A stretch of DNA of 64,000 bases. Source: Solidesulfovibrio fructosivorans JJ]. Lineage in GTDB: Bacteria > Desulfobacterota > Desulfovibrionia > Desulfovibrionales > Desulfovibrionaceae. Under the pieces are notes generated by a model. The model was not told where the DNA came from. It saw nothing but the letters and a program-made list of their open reading frames with translations, and made no database searches. Each line of letters begins with the position of its first letter. Positions within the stretch are counted from its first letter, which is position 1. A program made the position numbers and the translations under genes. The stretch is taken from positions 62,001 through 126,000 of the forward strand of contig NZ_AECZ01000004.1 of the NCBI RefSeq assembly GCF_000179555.1, given 5' to 3'. This document shows, piece by piece, positions 2,794-10,078 of this stretch.

Positions 2794-3342
2794 ATGAAAA
2801 AAGTTTATGTCTTGTTGAGCGGAGGAATCGATTCTTCAGCTTGTGCTCACTTTTATCAACAGGCAGACTTTCTAGTAGAAGCTATTTTCTTTAGTTACGG
2901 CCAAGCTGCTTCAGCTAAAGAAGAAATAGCTTCTAAAAATATTGCAGACCATCTTGGAATCCATCTGACTAAATACAACCTCGAGACTACCCAAACATTT
3001 TCTACGGGAGAATTGATCGGAAGGAATGCTTTTTTCATTTTTTCAGCAATCTTTTTTTCACGAATAACAAATGGATCAATCAGTCTTGGCATTCATGCTG
3101 GAACAACGTATTATGACTGTTCTGCTATTTTTTTTGACAGAATTAACAAACTAGTAAATGAATACACAAATGGATGCGTCAATATTCAGGCACCTTTTCT
3201 TAAATGGACAAAAAATGATATTTATCAATATTTTTTGTCAACAAAAATTCCCATAGAACTTACATATAGTTGCGAGTTAGGATCAGATTATCCGTGTGGA
3301 AGATGTGCATCGTGTAGAGACAGGAAGGCCTTGGGATGCTAG
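2794..3342 (+). CDS. cap9: QueC-like protein of type IV CBASS (Cap9)
   Basis: A 182-residue PP-loop ATPase of the 7-cyano-7-deazaguanine synthase (QueC) family. The ATP-binding SGGIDSS motif is at residues 9-15 and the zinc-binding cysteines are C160, C168, C171 and C174 (C-x7-CGRCASC), both as in QueC. It is shorter than housekeeping QueC (about 220 residues). It is the first gene of an operon with TGT-like, CD-NTase, membrane and OGG-like genes, which is the published signature of type IV CBASS, not of queuosine synthesis. As I recall, QueC-like enzymes of these systems attach a deazaguanine to the N-terminus of the partner CD-NTase. Its end overlaps the next gene by 7 bases. Confidence 0.85.
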   Translation: MKKVYVLLSGGIDSSACAHFYQQADFLVEAIFFSYGQAASAKEEIASKNIADHLGIHLTKYNLETTQTFSTGELIGRNAFFIFSAIFFSRITNGSISLGIHAGTTYYDCSAIFFDRINKLVNEYTNGCVNIQAPFLKWTKNDIYQYFLSTKIPIELTYSCELGSDYPCGRCASCRDRKALGC

Positions 3343-4307
3343 CTAAGCGGCGACATCTTTATTTAAATGATGGCAATATTGTTGATACTCCTCTTCTTAT
3401 TCCTTCTTTTTCAAGCAAAGGATTCCCCTATATATCTGGCATAATTGATACGACCAAAGAGGTTATATGTGACGAGATACTTGTAAGCGCCTACGATATT
3501 TACTATAAAATAATTACACCTCCATTTTCGTTTCCTTCTTTGATTTTTTTGGATAGTGGAGGATATGAGGTCTCTTCTGATTATGACTTATCGGACGAAA
3601 GTGATAAGGTTCATAAACCTAATGACTAGAAATTAGATTTTTACAACGAGGTTATCTCTTCTTGGAAAAGCTCGCCCCCTTCGGTGCTAATAAGTTATGA
3701 CCATCCTAAAGAGCGCATGCCTATAACAGACCAGATAGAAAGGGCAAAAACAAGTATTTTCAAATTTGACAATCATCTAAAAGAGTTATTAATTAAACCC
3801 GAAACACCAGACCAACAAACTTTAAAAATAAAATCAATAACTGACAACATATCTGATCTTTCTTCGTTCGATATAATAGGCGTTACAGAAAAAGAGATCG
3901 GGACATCAATCTTATCCAGAATGACAAATATTGCCAAAATAAGAACTTCTTTATCAGCAATTGGTAAAGAAACGCCTATTCATGTCTTTGGGAGTCTTGA
4001 CACGATTACGACCCCACTGTACTTCGTTTCTGGCGCTGATATTTTTGATGGTTTAACTTGGCTACGGTATGCATTTTGCGATGGATATACTATGTATAAA
4101 CACAACTACTCAGCTGTCAACATCGGTGTAAATGTCAAATCGCATAATATTGACGCCAATTGCTGGTACCATAACTATTATTATCTGTCAGACTTAAAAC
4201 TGCAAATGCGTAGGTACTTAAAAGATGGAGATTTTGGTCATTTCTCATATCATACAGATCTCATTCGGAATTCATATGCAAACGTCATTGAGGCGATAGG
4301 AGATTGA
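3336..4307 (+). pseudogene. cap10: TGT-like protein of type IV CBASS (Cap10), interrupted by amber codon
   Basis: A tRNA-guanine transglycosylase-fold protein of about 323 codons. The DSGGYE motif (residues 73-78) matches the DSGGFQ catalytic block of TGT, and the ADIFDGLTWLRYAF block later in the protein matches the nucleophile region around GVDxFDC of TGT. One in-frame TAG at 3627-3629 (codon 98) splits the reading frame; translation continues in the same frame without any other stop (KLDFYNEVISSWKSS...), so this is a point change and not a frameshift. A downstream GTG at 3684 opens the second part. It starts inside the end of cap9 and is followed after one base by the CD-NTase. Either inactivated, read through, or a base-call error. 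Confidence 0.75.
3627..3629 (+). other. In-frame TAG codon in cap10
   Basis: Reading frame from 3336 meets TAG here and stays open in the same frame to 4307. A single substitution from TAC, TAT, TGG or CAG would restore a 323-residue protein. Confidence 0.9.
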
Positions 4308-4308
4308 T

Positions 4309-5246
4309 ATGGGTGGCGGCGGAGCATATACCCCATTTAGCCCTCGTAGAACACCTGAGCAAATAAGTCAACGTATCCGCGAAGAAGAAGCAAAAGCTGC
4401 TGCGGCTTCATTTAACTCAGAGCTAGGGCAGTTTATCAATAACCAACTAGCAAAATTCAACTCACGAGATATTGAGCTCGTTTCGGAACGTTTAGAGTCT
4501 CTACTTGACACCATTAAGGATAGACTCGATATATCTGTCAACACTTTATTTGGAGGTTCTGTTGCCAAACACACTTACGTTGACGGATTGAGCGATATCG
4601 ACTCAATGCTTGTCATTAACGACTCGGCATTAACTGAAAAAACTCCATCAGCCATTTTAGACTTGTTAACACGCACATTAAAAAGCACTTATACTCAAGC
4701 CGCAAAAATAGACCACGGAAAGCTGGCAATCACTGTAGATTTTTTTGACGGCATGTCTATCCAACTTCTTCCGACAATTAAGTCAGAGCATGGATTAAGA
4801 ATATCTTCAGAAGATGGCAACAAATGGTCATCAATTAACCCTTCAAAATTTCAAGAACTTTTAACCAAAAGAAATTACGAGTGTGCGTCTAAGCTTATTC
4901 CAACCATAAAAATAGTCAAATCAATCATTGGAACACTACCTGAAGCGAGACAGCTTTCTGGATACCACATTGAAAGTCTTTCTATCAACATTTTTAAAAA
5001 CTATAATGGTGCAAAAACTTGCCAAGAAATGGTAAATATTTTTTTGAAAAGGCGCGAGACGCTATTTTAAAACCAATTCGCGACAAAACAGGTCAATCCA
5101 TTCATGTTGATGACTATCTTGGACAAGAAAATAGCTCTGCCCGAATTGAAGCGAGCCATTTACTTGGAAGACTACACAAGAGAATTCTTAACGCAAACGC
5201 AGCTGCTTCAATTAATATGTGGGAAGTAATTTTGGGGATTGACTAA
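4309..5246 (+). pseudogene. cdn: CBASS CD-NTase (cyclic oligonucleotide synthase), frameshifted as sequenced
   Basis: Nucleotidyltransferase that makes the cyclic nucleotide signal of CBASS. GGS at residues 82-84 with DID at 96-98 forms the GS-x(n)-DxD catalytic motif; the third acidic position is probably D144 or D147, because the usual IDxxP block reads IQLLP. A C-terminal TGQSIHVDDYLG block typical of this CD-NTase group follows. The protein begins MGGGGAYTPF: four glycines at the mature N-terminus, the likely site of modification by the QueC-like partner. The frame starting at 4309 runs out at 5070; the rest is in the -1 frame to 5246. Adding one T to the T7 run near 5039 restores a 312-residue protein. 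One base separates it from cap10. Confidence 0.8.
5039..5046 (+). other. Frameshift point / possible -1 slippery site in CD-NTase
   Basis: In the frame of the CD-NTase the codons read ATT TTT TTG, that is T TTT TTG, which fits the X XXY YYZ form of a -1 slippery heptamer. The same position would also be repaired by one extra T in the homopolymer. The sequence alone cannot choose between programmed slippage, mutation and sequencing error. Confidence 0.5.
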
Positions 5247-5247
5247 T

Positions 5248-5832
5248 ATGTCCTACCGAAAGGATGAAATAGAAAGAGTCAAACGAGTCGCGGACATGAC
5301 TTGTTCAGCCCATGCTTTTTTGCGGGATAAATATTATTTTAAAAGTACTCTCCTTGACCTAGTGGTCGTCTCAATATCCACTTGGATTATTGCATTGGTT
5401 TTCGTTGAGCCAAAAATAAATATTATATTAACACCGTGGCATATTGAACCTATTATTTGGGTTGGTCTATTATCTATTTTAAGTTTTTTCTTTTCATTGC
5501 TTCAGTTTATCATCAACTGGAAAGAAAAATATAACTTACACAAAGCGGCCGTTGATATTTTCGCAGAATTAAAGAATGACGCACGAACATTACTTTTAAC
5601 CGTACCAAGCGAAATAGATGAAGAAAAATTTAACTACTTTTGCCAAAAAGCAGTGGATGCTTCCAAAAAATCACCGCCAATACCTGAACGCATTTTTTTG
5701 AAAATGAAAAAACGGCACCTAATAAAAATCGCTATAAGCAAGCACCTTGATATGCACCCGAACTCGAGCATTGCAATTTTTAAGTTTAAGATGTTCATCG
5801 AAGACAATTTTCGCGTGGATCCTGGACAGTAG
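5248..5832 (+). CDS. SLATT-type two-TM membrane effector of CBASS
   Basis: A 194-residue protein with two closely spaced transmembrane helices (about residues 33-53 and 68-90), preceded by an amphipathic RKDEIERVKRVADM start and followed by a cytosolic helical region with INWKEKYNLHKAAVD. This layout is that of SLATT-domain proteins, which are predicted pore-forming effectors in nucleotide-signal defence systems. The ATG at 5248 lies one base after the CD-NTase stop; an upstream TTG in frame at 5239 is less likely. The position inside the operon suggests it is the killing effector gated by the CD-NTase product. The exact family was judged by eye. Confidence 0.7.
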   Translation: MSYRKDEIERVKRVADMTCSAHAFLRDKYYFKSTLLDLVVVSISTWIIALVFVEPKINIILTPWHIEPIIWVGLLSILSFFFSLLQFIINWKEKYNLHKAAVDIFAELKNDARTLLLTVPSEIDEEKFNYFCQKAVDASKKSPPIPERIFLKMKKRHLIKIAISKHLDMHPNSSIAIFKFKMFIEDNFRVDPGQ

Positions 5833-5833
5833 C

Positions 5834-6376
5834 ATGAACAAAGCTTTATTAAATTTCTACGAAAATGCATATTCTTATTGTATCGAGAATAACTACCTCA
5901 ATGAGATAGAATGGCAATCGTCACTTGACTTTTCCACCTTCACTGAAGTCGACCTACTTCGGGAGTCTTCCTGGGTAATTCTATGCAGCGGCTTCCGCGA
6001 GAGATGCGTAAAGAAAATTTTTAATTATATATCATTATGTTTTTTTGACTGGGAATCATCAGAATCCATAGTTGAACAATCTGATTTATGTATTAATACA
6101 GCCCTGTCAATCTTTAATCACTCCAAAAAAATTGTGGCTATTACTGATGTTGCAAAATTTATATTACACACTGGATTCTCTAATTATAAATCTCAAATTA
6201 CCCGCAACCCAATTAACACACTGCAAAAACTTCCTTATATTGGCCCAATAACAGCGTTACATCTGGCCAAAAATATCGGTTTTAATACATCAAAACCAGA
6301 CCGTCATTTAGAACGGCTAAGAAAATATTTCAGCTTTAAAGATACAAATTCACTCTGCAAATTACTTTCAAAATAA
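5834..6376 (+). CDS. cap11: OGG-like HhH glycosylase of type IV CBASS (Cap11)
   Basis: A 180-residue helix-hairpin-helix DNA-glycosylase-fold protein. Its hairpin reads LPYIGPITALHLAKNIG and is followed by SKPDRHLERL, whose Asp matches the catalytic Asp of the HhH-GPD family (VDVH in OGG1). The Schiff-base Lys of OGG1 (LPGVGTK) is replaced by Ile, so bifunctional lyase activity is unlikely; it could act as a monofunctional glycosylase or use another base substrate. The ATG at 5834 is one base after the SLATT stop. OGG-like genes are the third ancillary gene that defines type IV CBASS. The role in the immune reaction is not known to me. Confidence 0.75.
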   Translation: MNKALLNFYENAYSYCIENNYLNEIEWQSSLDFSTFTEVDLLRESSWVILCSGFRERCVKKIFNYISLCFFDWESSESIVEQSDLCINTALSIFNHSKKIVAITDVAKFILHTGFSNYKSQITRNPINTLQKLPYIGPITALHLAKNIGFNTSKPDRHLERLRKYFSFKDTNSLCKLLSK

Positions 6377-6576: not shown

Positions 6577-6712
6577 TAATGCGCAACTATTCCCCAACAA
6601 TCCAGCTAGCTACTTCTTTTCCAAGACAATCTTCCCCTCTTCCAGGCACGATACCTTGAACTCATCGCCCTGCTTGAAGCCGTAGTTGGCCAGGAATGCA
6701 CGGCAATAAATA
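6539..6712 (-). pseudogene. 3' end fragment of AbrB-like regulator gene (R3 copy 1)
   Basis: On the minus strand the last 27 codons encode LANYGFKQGDEFKVSCLE plus EGKIVLEKK and a stop, nearly identical to the C-terminus of the intact regulator at 7433-7750. The gene is cut off upstream at about 6712, 20 bases before the next gene. Together with the hairpin it forms repeat R3. Confidence 0.75.
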
Positions 6713-7410: not shown

Positions 7411-7432
7411 CACAGAACTATCCGAAATTCTG

Positions 7433-7750
7433 CTACTTCTTCTCCAGCACAATTTTCCCTGCTTCCAAACAGGACACATTGAACTCGTCGCCCTGGCTGA
7501 ACCCGTAGTTGGCCAGAAGCGTCGGGGACAGACGGAGACCATTCTTCGAGAACTTCACGCTTCCAGAGGCCACGCGAGCATCCATCCCTTCGATCTTGTA
7601 GAATTTCTCATCCAGCGTCATCAGCTTCGTGAGATGGTTTTTCAGGGTGGTTTTGGGAATATCGAAGGCATCCATAATTTGCTGAGCGGTTTTCCCTTCG
7701 GTGATCATGGTGCGAAGTTTCATCGCGTCAAATTTCGATGCGATAGGCAT
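7433..7750 (-). CDS. HTH plus AbrB/MazE-like DNA-binding protein
   Basis: A 105-residue predicted regulator. Residues about 18-45 (KTAQQIMDAFDIPKTTLKNH) form a helix-turn-helix and residues about 65-105 (VKFSKNGLRLSP...QGDEFNVSC...GKIVLEKK) look like a SpoVT/AbrB swapped-hairpin domain. AGGAGACC precedes the ATG (plus strand ggtctcctt). No toxin partner lies next to it. Its 3' end and terminator are duplicated at 6539-6712 and 32262-32412, which is unusual and makes it a marker of island rearrangement. Confidence 0.7.
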   Translation of the reverse strand: MPIASKFDAMKLRTMITEGKTAQQIMDAFDIPKTTLKNHLTKLMTLDEKFYKIEGMDARVASGSVKFSKNGLRLSPTLLANYGFSQGDEFNVSCLEAGKIVLEKK

Positions 7751-8878: not shown

Positions 8879-9242
8879 ACTGTCCAGCGCTTATAAAAAA
8901 TGCTTACTTAACATATTCACCCCGGCAGTAACAACCGCAATCCACTTTACCAAAACACTTATGGAATTTCCCCAGAGAGACTTACTGACCTTCCTGCTTA
9001 ACTACGGTTCAAGGCGAGATGTTACTCATCACCGGGGCCATTCTGTGCTCGCTGATGGAGCCACCCGGAGCCGATCTTTTCCCCTCGGCCTGTTCCCCCG
9101 GCCCCCCTCTCCAACCTTCTCTACGGGCCCTTCCTGGGACTTTTTCCCAGAACTCCCCCATTGGACTCCCCTTGGGCCAAAACCCCAGAAAATCGCAGTA
9201 TACTCCCAACGTCCTTTTTCCAATGGGTTTTTTTCGAAAAAT
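8879..9242. other. Intergenic region holding R2 copy 1
   Basis: GC content rises sharply inside this otherwise AT-rich area because of a pyrimidine-rich repeat copy (9095-9223). No protein gene is supported. Confidence 0.5.
9095..9223 (+). repeat. Repeat R2, copy 1
   Basis: Shares CTCCCCCATTGGACTCCCC, AAAACCCCAG and GTATACTCCCAACGTCC with copies at 9930 and 10566, all in the same orientation. It ends 20 bases before the stop of the next minus-strand gene. Confidence 0.7.
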
Positions 9243-9929: not shown

Positions 9930-10078
9930 CCCCCCCCGGGGCCAGCCACTTCCCGGACACCCCTCCCCTGCCCTCTACCGGGCTCCTCCTGGGACGTTTT
10001 CCTAGAACTCCCCCATTGGACTCCCCTTGGACTAAAATCCCAGGGAGTCCCCGTATACTCCCAACGTCCTTTTTTCTT
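9930..10078 (+). repeat. Repeat R2, copy 2
   Basis: Second copy of R2, about 100 bp closely matching 9120-9223, including the block GTATACTCCCAACGTCC and a following T-run. It begins in a C9 homopolymer. Confidence 0.7.

What the first reader, a model, noticed from the sequence alone, without database searches (positions are those of the whole stretch)
4309..4340. CD-NTase starts with four glycines: likely substrate of the QueC-like enzyme
The predicted mature N-terminus is GGGGAYTPF. As I recall, QueC-like proteins of type IV CBASS conjugate a 7-deazaguanine to the N-terminal glycine of their CD-NTase (deazaguanylation). The glycine run followed by an aromatic and Pro-rich stretch and then a long helix (EQISQRIREEE) fits a tail exposed for modification. 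The tail precedes the nucleotidyltransferase domain.
Basis: partly seen in the sequence, partly recalled or inferred. Interest (0 to 1): 0.8.

Follow-up and report, generated by a model that had tools for sequence, protein, structure and literature searches.

The report
Glycine tail of a type IV CBASS cyclase
A bacterial immune-signalling enzyme here begins with the glycine tail that, in related systems, a neighbouring enzyme tags with a modified nucleobase; this copy of the operon looks broken, and a similar tail also appears in a second kind of operon where a TIR protein stands in for the enzyme.

Summary
The only start of the CD-NTase (ATG 4309, AGGAG 6 nt upstream) gives MGGGGAYTPF, inside a type IV CBASS operon: Cap9/QueC, Cap10/TGT, CD-NTase, 2TM effector, Cap11/OGG. 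The closest solved structures are CdnD complexes carrying the NDG modification. Corrections: MGGS is the usual motif, and this copy looks inactivated (in-frame TAG in Cap10, frame break in the CD-NTase), although Cap9 is intact. Following the cassette outward gave the more novel result: 36 operons with a distinct QueC, a TGT (TIR-fused in 20), OGG in 35 and no CD-NTase hit, but a small TIR protein starting M-G-G in 35 of 36. This suggests a tagging cassette that moves between signal-making enzymes. No mass shift was measured.

The parts
2794..3342 (+). Cap9 (QueC-like), 182 aa, intact
   Evidence: PADLOC QueC 3e-76; 8.9e-57 to solved Cap9 9nto_B; SGGxDS, YxQ(x)5E, RN, YxDC, CE(x)6CxxCxxCxD present
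3336..4307 (+). Cap10 (TGT-like), one frame interrupted by an in-frame TAG
   Evidence: PADLOC TGT on both sides of the stop (5.7e-33 and 1.5e-81); solved Cap10 9ntn_A 3.2e-59 for the second part; 'stops_inside 1 TAG'
3627..3629 (+). in-frame TAG inside Cap10, at a column that is one conserved residue in 43 of 45 other rows (2 gaps)
   Evidence: column; in-frame reading; no PylS over the cut-off in the genome
4298..4302 (+). AGGAG, Shine-Dalgarno-like, 6 nt before the CD-NTase ATG
   Evidence: sequence
4309..5070 (+). CD-NTase (SMODS), first frame, 253 aa; lacks its C-terminal part because of a frame break
   Evidence: PF18144 1.7e-11; PADLOC Cyclase PDLC00790 4.3e-89; 9ntn_G CdnD 2.6e-63
4312..4323 (+). 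four glycine codons after the start: predicted NDG acceptor at Gly2 and its tail
   Evidence: conservation
5034..5246 (+). C-terminal part of the CD-NTase in another frame; the frame break lies at a T run around 5035-5046
   Evidence: PDLC00790 positions 241-308 at G000:C4:67034-67237 = window 5034-5237, E 3.8e-22
5248..5832 (+). 2TM effector
   Evidence: PADLOC Effector/2TM 4.2e-59 (run on 5263-5829)
5834..6376 (+). Cap11 (OGG-like)
   Evidence: PADLOC OGG 7.7e-71; no Pfam hit

Best explanation
The glycine run is the start of the substrate tail of a type IV CBASS CD-NTase (CdnD type). By homology, methionine aminopeptidase removes Met1 (inferred). Cap9 then activates 7-carboxy-7-deazaguanine with ATP and joins it to the amine of Gly2, and Cap10 binds the tagged N-terminus, so that the CD-NTase can take part in defence, here presumably through the 2TM effector (chemistry and Cap10 binding published for relatives). 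Shown here: operon content, a unique start, a Gly tail whose conservation is tied to this operon type, intact Cap9 motifs, a second full QueC and a QueE-like match elsewhere in the genome. Inferred: that this protein is modified. In this genome Cap10 and the CD-NTase are each interrupted, so the copy as sequenced is probably a decayed locus that still shows the tail.
For: Five operon genes by PADLOC. The nearest solved structures are the NDG-bearing Cap10-CdnD and Cap9-CdnD complexes. Gly2 in 41 of 44 type IV loci, Gly2-Gly3 in 38 of 44; with a glycine-blind start rule 41 and 38 of 45 rows, against Gly2 in 3 and Gly2-Gly3 in 0 of 132 Cap9/Cap10/2TM/OGG starts, Fisher 6.5e-32 for Gly2-Gly3, ignoring kinship. 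Thinning 40 aligned rows (window plus 39 of the 44) to 36 below 80% identity leaves Gly2 in 33 of 36. Gly2-Gly3 in 0 and Gly2 in 1 of 15 other SMODS CD-NTases. Disordered tail before a helix at 16-51. Own genome: full QueC match at C13:39952 and a QueE-like match at C13:39294.
Against: Cap10 carries an in-frame TAG and the CD-NTase C-terminus is out of frame. No second Cap10 was found in the genome with the C-terminal part as query, and 0 of 58 other sampled relatives have this CD-NTase family, so there is no close intact copy to compare. Three of 44 loci have Ala or Thr at position 2, so the pattern does not demand glycine. The QueE-like match is below the family cut-off (70.9 against 206.1 bits). 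No modification was measured.
Confidence: 0.9

Rival explanations
1. The operon is intact and working; the TAG and the frame break are assembly or sequencing errors.
For: Draft genome in 75 contigs; the frame break lies at a T run; Cap9 and the tail are well preserved.
Against: Two separate lesions in two neighbouring genes, one a stop codon inside an otherwise open frame. Split ORFs occur in other loci of the set (L019, L024, L028, L047, L048), so decay is plausible.
Confidence: 0.3
2. The glycines are a plain flexible linker of low complexity without a modification.
For: The Gly-rich start is predicted disordered, and Ala or Thr replaces Gly2 in 3 of 44 loci.
Against: Gly2 is a nearly invariant column, Gly2-Gly3 is absent from 132 partner-gene starts and 15 other SMODS CD-NTases, and the tail recurs on an unrelated fold beside another QueC.
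Confidence: 0.04
3. The lesions are programmed recoding (frameshift and stop read-through).
For: A T run at the frame break; L019 also has a split CD-NTase.
Against: L019 breaks about ten residues earlier at a different sequence. Among 45 type IV loci Cap10 is split only in L047 and L048, and the CD-NTase is split or short only in L019, L048 and (at a contig end) L040. No PylS over the cut-off.
Confidence: 0.02

Closest known systems
Type IV CBASS with Cap9/Cap10/CdnD and NDG modification (abstract PMC11996544; Science 2025 doi 10.1126/science.adx6053, not held; PDB 9ntn, 9nto)
   Same: Same gene set; CD-NTase 40-42% identical to the CdnD chains in the fold alignment; N-terminal glycine tail; Cap9 motifs
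   Different: GGGGAYTPF in place of the commoner MGGS start; Cap10 and CD-NTase frames are interrupted here
qatABCD (passages and Discussion of PMC13279940)
   Same: QueC-family enzyme paired with a protein that has an essential N-terminal Gly motif (MGTS)
   Different: Different substrate protein (QatB), and its gene set has neither a CD-NTase nor a TGT (as I recall it); QatC replaces the Tyr/Asp base-recognition residues with Thr
Thoeris ThsB-type TIR proteins (compared with the second operon type, not with the window)
   Same: Both Gly-tailed TIR proteins tested match ThsB_TIR PF08937; the modelled one is nearest to B. cereus TIR 8fz9, then ThsB structures
   Different: Three TIR relatives with no QueC annotated within 4 kb (L114, L115, L116) start at the domain without a Gly tail

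Membership tests
Type IV CBASS | QueC-like Cap9 in the operon | tested here: met
Type IV CBASS | TGT-like Cap10 in the operon | tested here: met
   present but interrupted by TAG
Type IV CBASS | CD-NTase | tested here: met
   GGS (82-84) and DxD (96-98) in conserved columns
Type IV CBASS | effector gene | tested here: met
   2TM model 4.2e-59
Type IV CBASS | OGG-like Cap11 (found in part of the loci) | tested here: met
   other loci
Type IV CBASS | all operon genes open | tested here: not met
   Cap10 TAG and CD-NTase frame break; this lowers the claim of a working system, not of descent
NDG (deazaguanylation) substrate | N-terminal Gly exposed after Met removal, on a disordered tail | tested here: met
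   sequence; mean pLDDT 47 for residues 1-10; Met removal is inferred
NDG (deazaguanylation) substrate | covalent 7-deazaguanine on Gly2 | not testable with these tools
   needs mass spectrometry
Second operon type as an NDG system | QueC with ATP loop, zinc cysteines and base-binding residues | tested here: inconclusive
   SGGxDS, YGQ(x)5E, RN and CH(x)6CxxCxxC in 36 of 36; FPD (Asp in 36 of 36) instead of Cap9's YxDC (0 of 36)

The most novel reading that the evidence does not exclude
QueC-TGT-OGG is a portable protein-deazaguanylation cassette. Besides type IV CBASS it forms a second, CD-NTase-free immune operon in which the tagged substrate is a small ThsB-like TIR protein with an M-G-G tail, and the effector is a TIR fused to the TGT or a SLATT 2TM protein. 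Tagging the N-terminus of a signal-making enzyme, with the TGT as reader, would then be a general licensing step shared by cyclic-nucleotide and TIR signalling.
Probability: 0.6. Interest if true: 0.8.

Novelty: new member of a known kind. Interest (0 to 1): 0.45.

Why it matters
The window's gene adds a divergent, apparently decayed member to type IV CBASS. The test around it shows the Gly start across many bacterial groups and in two Methanothrix (archaeal) records, with rare Ala or Thr variants that could test the acceptor rule. If true, the TIR operons would extend nucleobase-protein conjugation to a second class of signalling enzyme and give a clean comparison for what the tag does.

Tried and rejected
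Cap10 (C-terminal part) against viral contigs (5 pattern stretches, none a relative) and phages (no match): nothing. Relatives of the genome with the CD-NTase family: 0 of 58 others. Pyrrolysine read-through of the TAG: best PylS match 23 bits against a cut-off of 178.15. Programmed frameshift: L019 breaks elsewhere. I considered that the QueC of the TIR operons is 'Cluster 4' of PMC13329287, whose neighbourhoods hold a PfkB-domain gene (about 88% in operon; section read): 17 loci including L009 have a PfkB-like gene (PF00294 in both tested), but the published Cluster 4 cysteine motif fits 0 of 36, so I do not equate them.

Faulty steps: the Cap10 read-through was out of frame after the X, so only its stop column is used, and repeats it in frame. 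In one search the control CD-NTase starts were read on one strand only, and redid them. One search picked wrong start positions for the TIR genes of L062 and L085; they were left out of alignments A3 and A5.

Literature (openly licensed PMC full text only). In the listings I saw no paper whose title or abstract start joins TIR with QueC, TGT and OGG. PMC10952713 holds both TIR and QueC; in the one QueC passage I saw QueC is tied to qatABCD and type IV CBASS. PMC7699616 holds TIR, QueC and Thoeris and was not opened. The Science paper, Millman 2020 and two papers that I recalled as possible prior descriptions are not held, so an earlier description there cannot be excluded.

Full report
What is there. 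Window 2794-6376 encodes, in order, Cap9 (QueC-like), Cap10 (TGT-like), a CD-NTase, a 2TM effector and Cap11 (OGG-like), each matching a PADLOC model of that kind. By sequence the best solved relatives are Cap9 9nto_B (8.9e-57), Cap10 9ntn_A (3.2e-59) and CdnD 9ntn_G (2.6e-63). By fold the top three hits of the CD-NTase model are chains of the Cap10-CdnD and Cap9-CdnD complexes 'containing NDG modification'.

The start. ATG 4309 is the only start codon found at the N-terminal end of its stop-to-stop frame (row L100). It follows the Cap10 stop by 1 nt and has AGGAG 6 nt upstream. It gives MGGGGAYTPFSPRRTPEQISQRIREEE. In an AlphaFold2 model built on 39 sequences residues 1-10 average pLDDT 47 and a helix runs from 16 to 51. 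Of 235 mechanical ORFs of at least 80 aa in the window, three start M-G-G and one M-G-G-G-G.

Conservation test. One scan of genome contigs with a Cap10 alignment gave 164 stretches and 105 relatives, of which the best 80 were kept. With four further loci (L008-L011) 84 loci were labelled with HMMs that I built from one to three seeds each. Forty-five carry type IV Cap10 (L008, L011, L012-L054); in 44 the neighbouring CD-NTase start can be read (L036 has no CD-NTase hit; its sequence ends within Cap10). Gly2 is present in 41 of 44 and Gly2-Gly3 in 38 of 44. The exceptions are L015 (Ala), L049 (Ala), L054 (Thr), and L035, L037, L038 with Gly2 but Ser or Ala at position 3. A start rule that ignores glycine gave 41 and 38 of 45 rows, one row being a C-terminal fragment of L019. 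Under the same rule Gly2 occurs in 2 of 39 Cap9, 0 of 41 Cap10, 0 of 25 2TM and 1 of 27 OGG starts, so in 3 of 132, and Gly2-Gly3 in 0 of 132 (Fisher 6.5e-32 for Gly2-Gly3, which ignores kinship). Forty aligned rows (the window and 39 of the 44, with L015 trimmed to its ATG) thin to 36 below 80% identity, of which 33 keep Gly2. As a control, 15 other SMODS CD-NTases from the same phylum (the 16 matches less the window's own; two of the 15 are below the Pfam cut-off) have Gly2 in 1 and Gly2-Gly3 in 0; two more have an unpicked in-frame start that would read M-G. Position 4 is Ser in 33 and Gly in 10 of 45 rows, so the window's GGGG is the minority form. With L015 read from its ATG, the residues at position 2 are Gly, Ala and Thr, all small; that Met is removed before small residues is stated in a passage of PMC13279940.

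Mechanism and literature. From passages and the Discussion of PMC13279940, passages and two sections of PMC13329287 and the abstract of PMC11996544: Cap9 uses ATP and 7-carboxy-7-deazaguanine to make an amide with the N-terminal glycine of the CD-NTase; Cap10 binds the modified terminus; Cap9, Cap10 and the modification are needed for defence; G2D blocks it; the motif is described as MGGS. The Science paper itself is not held. The window Cap9 has the published Cap9 motifs. The genome has a separate full QueC match and, about 170 bases before it, a QueE-like match below its cut-off, so a CDG source is likely.

Damage. The Cap10 frame is interrupted by TAG 3627-3629, at a column with one conserved residue in 43 of 45 other rows and gaps in 2 (in-frame reading). 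The CD-NTase frame breaks at a T run around 5035-5046, and its C-terminal part continues in another frame to 5246. A search with the C-terminal part of Cap10 finds no other copy in the genome, and there is no PylS over the cut-off. Several other loci have split ORFs too (L019, L024, L028, L047, L048). I read this as a decaying locus, with assembly error as the main rival.

Where it led. Thirty-nine of the 84 loci (L009, L010, L055-L091) belong to another operon: a TGT, an OGG and a QueC of a distinct subfamily, then a small TIR protein, with no hit to my CD-NTase HMM in the held stretches. L063, L079 and L084 show only part of it. In the other 36 the TIR gene is present, and 35 of these have an OGG hit (not L072). 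Both TIR proteins tested match ThsB_TIR. A start reading M-G-G is present in 35 of 36, the exception being L064 (MAGSGGG); in 31 of the 35 loci where its place could be measured it lies 0-21 nt after the QueC stop and in four it overlaps that stop by 1-14 nt (L085, not placed). L062's TIR gene is split after this start, and L058 starts with GTG. The blind rule gave 36 rows, 29 of them Gly2-Gly3: 34 rows are these TIR genes (L062 and L085 gave none), missed in L059, L064 and three loci with an extra ATG just upstream (L071, L074, L080), and two rows are other, tail-less TIR genes of L081 and L085. Among 114 QueC, TGT and OGG starts of this kind (three of the OGG rows come from type IV loci L045, L046, L050) Gly2 occurs in 8, six of them QueC, and Gly2-Gly3 in 0. 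TIR relatives with no QueC annotated within 4 kb (L114, L115, L116) start without the tail. In the model of the L066 TIR protein residues 2-13 have pLDDT under 50, and the fold is nearest to a B. cereus TIR protein. Two flavours exist: a TIR domain fused to the TGT in 20 of 36, 17 of them with a PfkB-like gene; and 16 without a detected fusion (L076 is cut at the contig start), 13 of which have a SLATT 2TM gene upstream. The TIR-operon QueC keeps the ATP loop, YGQ(x)5E, RN, an FPD Asp and a CH(x)6CxxCxxC cysteine set in 36 of 36. In the two operons tested the PADLOC TGT and QueC models match (8.5e-23 and 8.5e-24; 4.2e-29 and 4.8e-20), the OGG model does not. I found no paper describing this operon in the searches named under Tried and rejected.

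Verdict. The finding is a correct reading of a known mechanism in a new, probably inactive member. The added value is the conservation test with controls, the notice of damage, and the TIR operons, which make the generality of the modification directly testable.

Noticed in passing
L009:3868-8279, L010:2893-6178, L055-L091: Operons without a CD-NTase hit: TGT (fused to TIR in 20 of 36), OGG, QueC and a ThsB-like TIR protein that begins M-G-G in 35 of 36; candidate second deazaguanylation immune system.
   Followed up: partly
window 3627-3629 and 5035-5046: In-frame TAG in Cap10 and a frame break in the CD-NTase: the operon looks inactivated.
   Followed up: yes
window 6609-6693 and 7432-7516: 85-nt direct repeat, 82% identical: the first copy resembles a remnant of the small gene at 7433-7750, just downstream of the CBASS operon.
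   Followed up: no
window 9124-9219 and 9979-10074: 96-nt direct repeat, 88% identical.
   Followed up: no
window CD-NTase residue 152 (IQLLP): Gln in 42 of 45 aligned type IV CD-NTases near where, as I recall, many CD-NTases have a third acidic active-site residue; register not tested.
   Followed up: no
L015, L049, L054: Type IV CD-NTases with Ala or Thr in place of Gly2; in L054 the Cap9 also has Ala for the Cys of YxDC and Leu for the Glu of the CE motif.
   Followed up: partly
L116:3510-4462 and L115:4046-5360: DUF4231 and TIR genes side by side with no QueC annotated nearby, on plasmids: possible two-gene parent of the SLATT flavour of the TIR operon.
   Followed up: no
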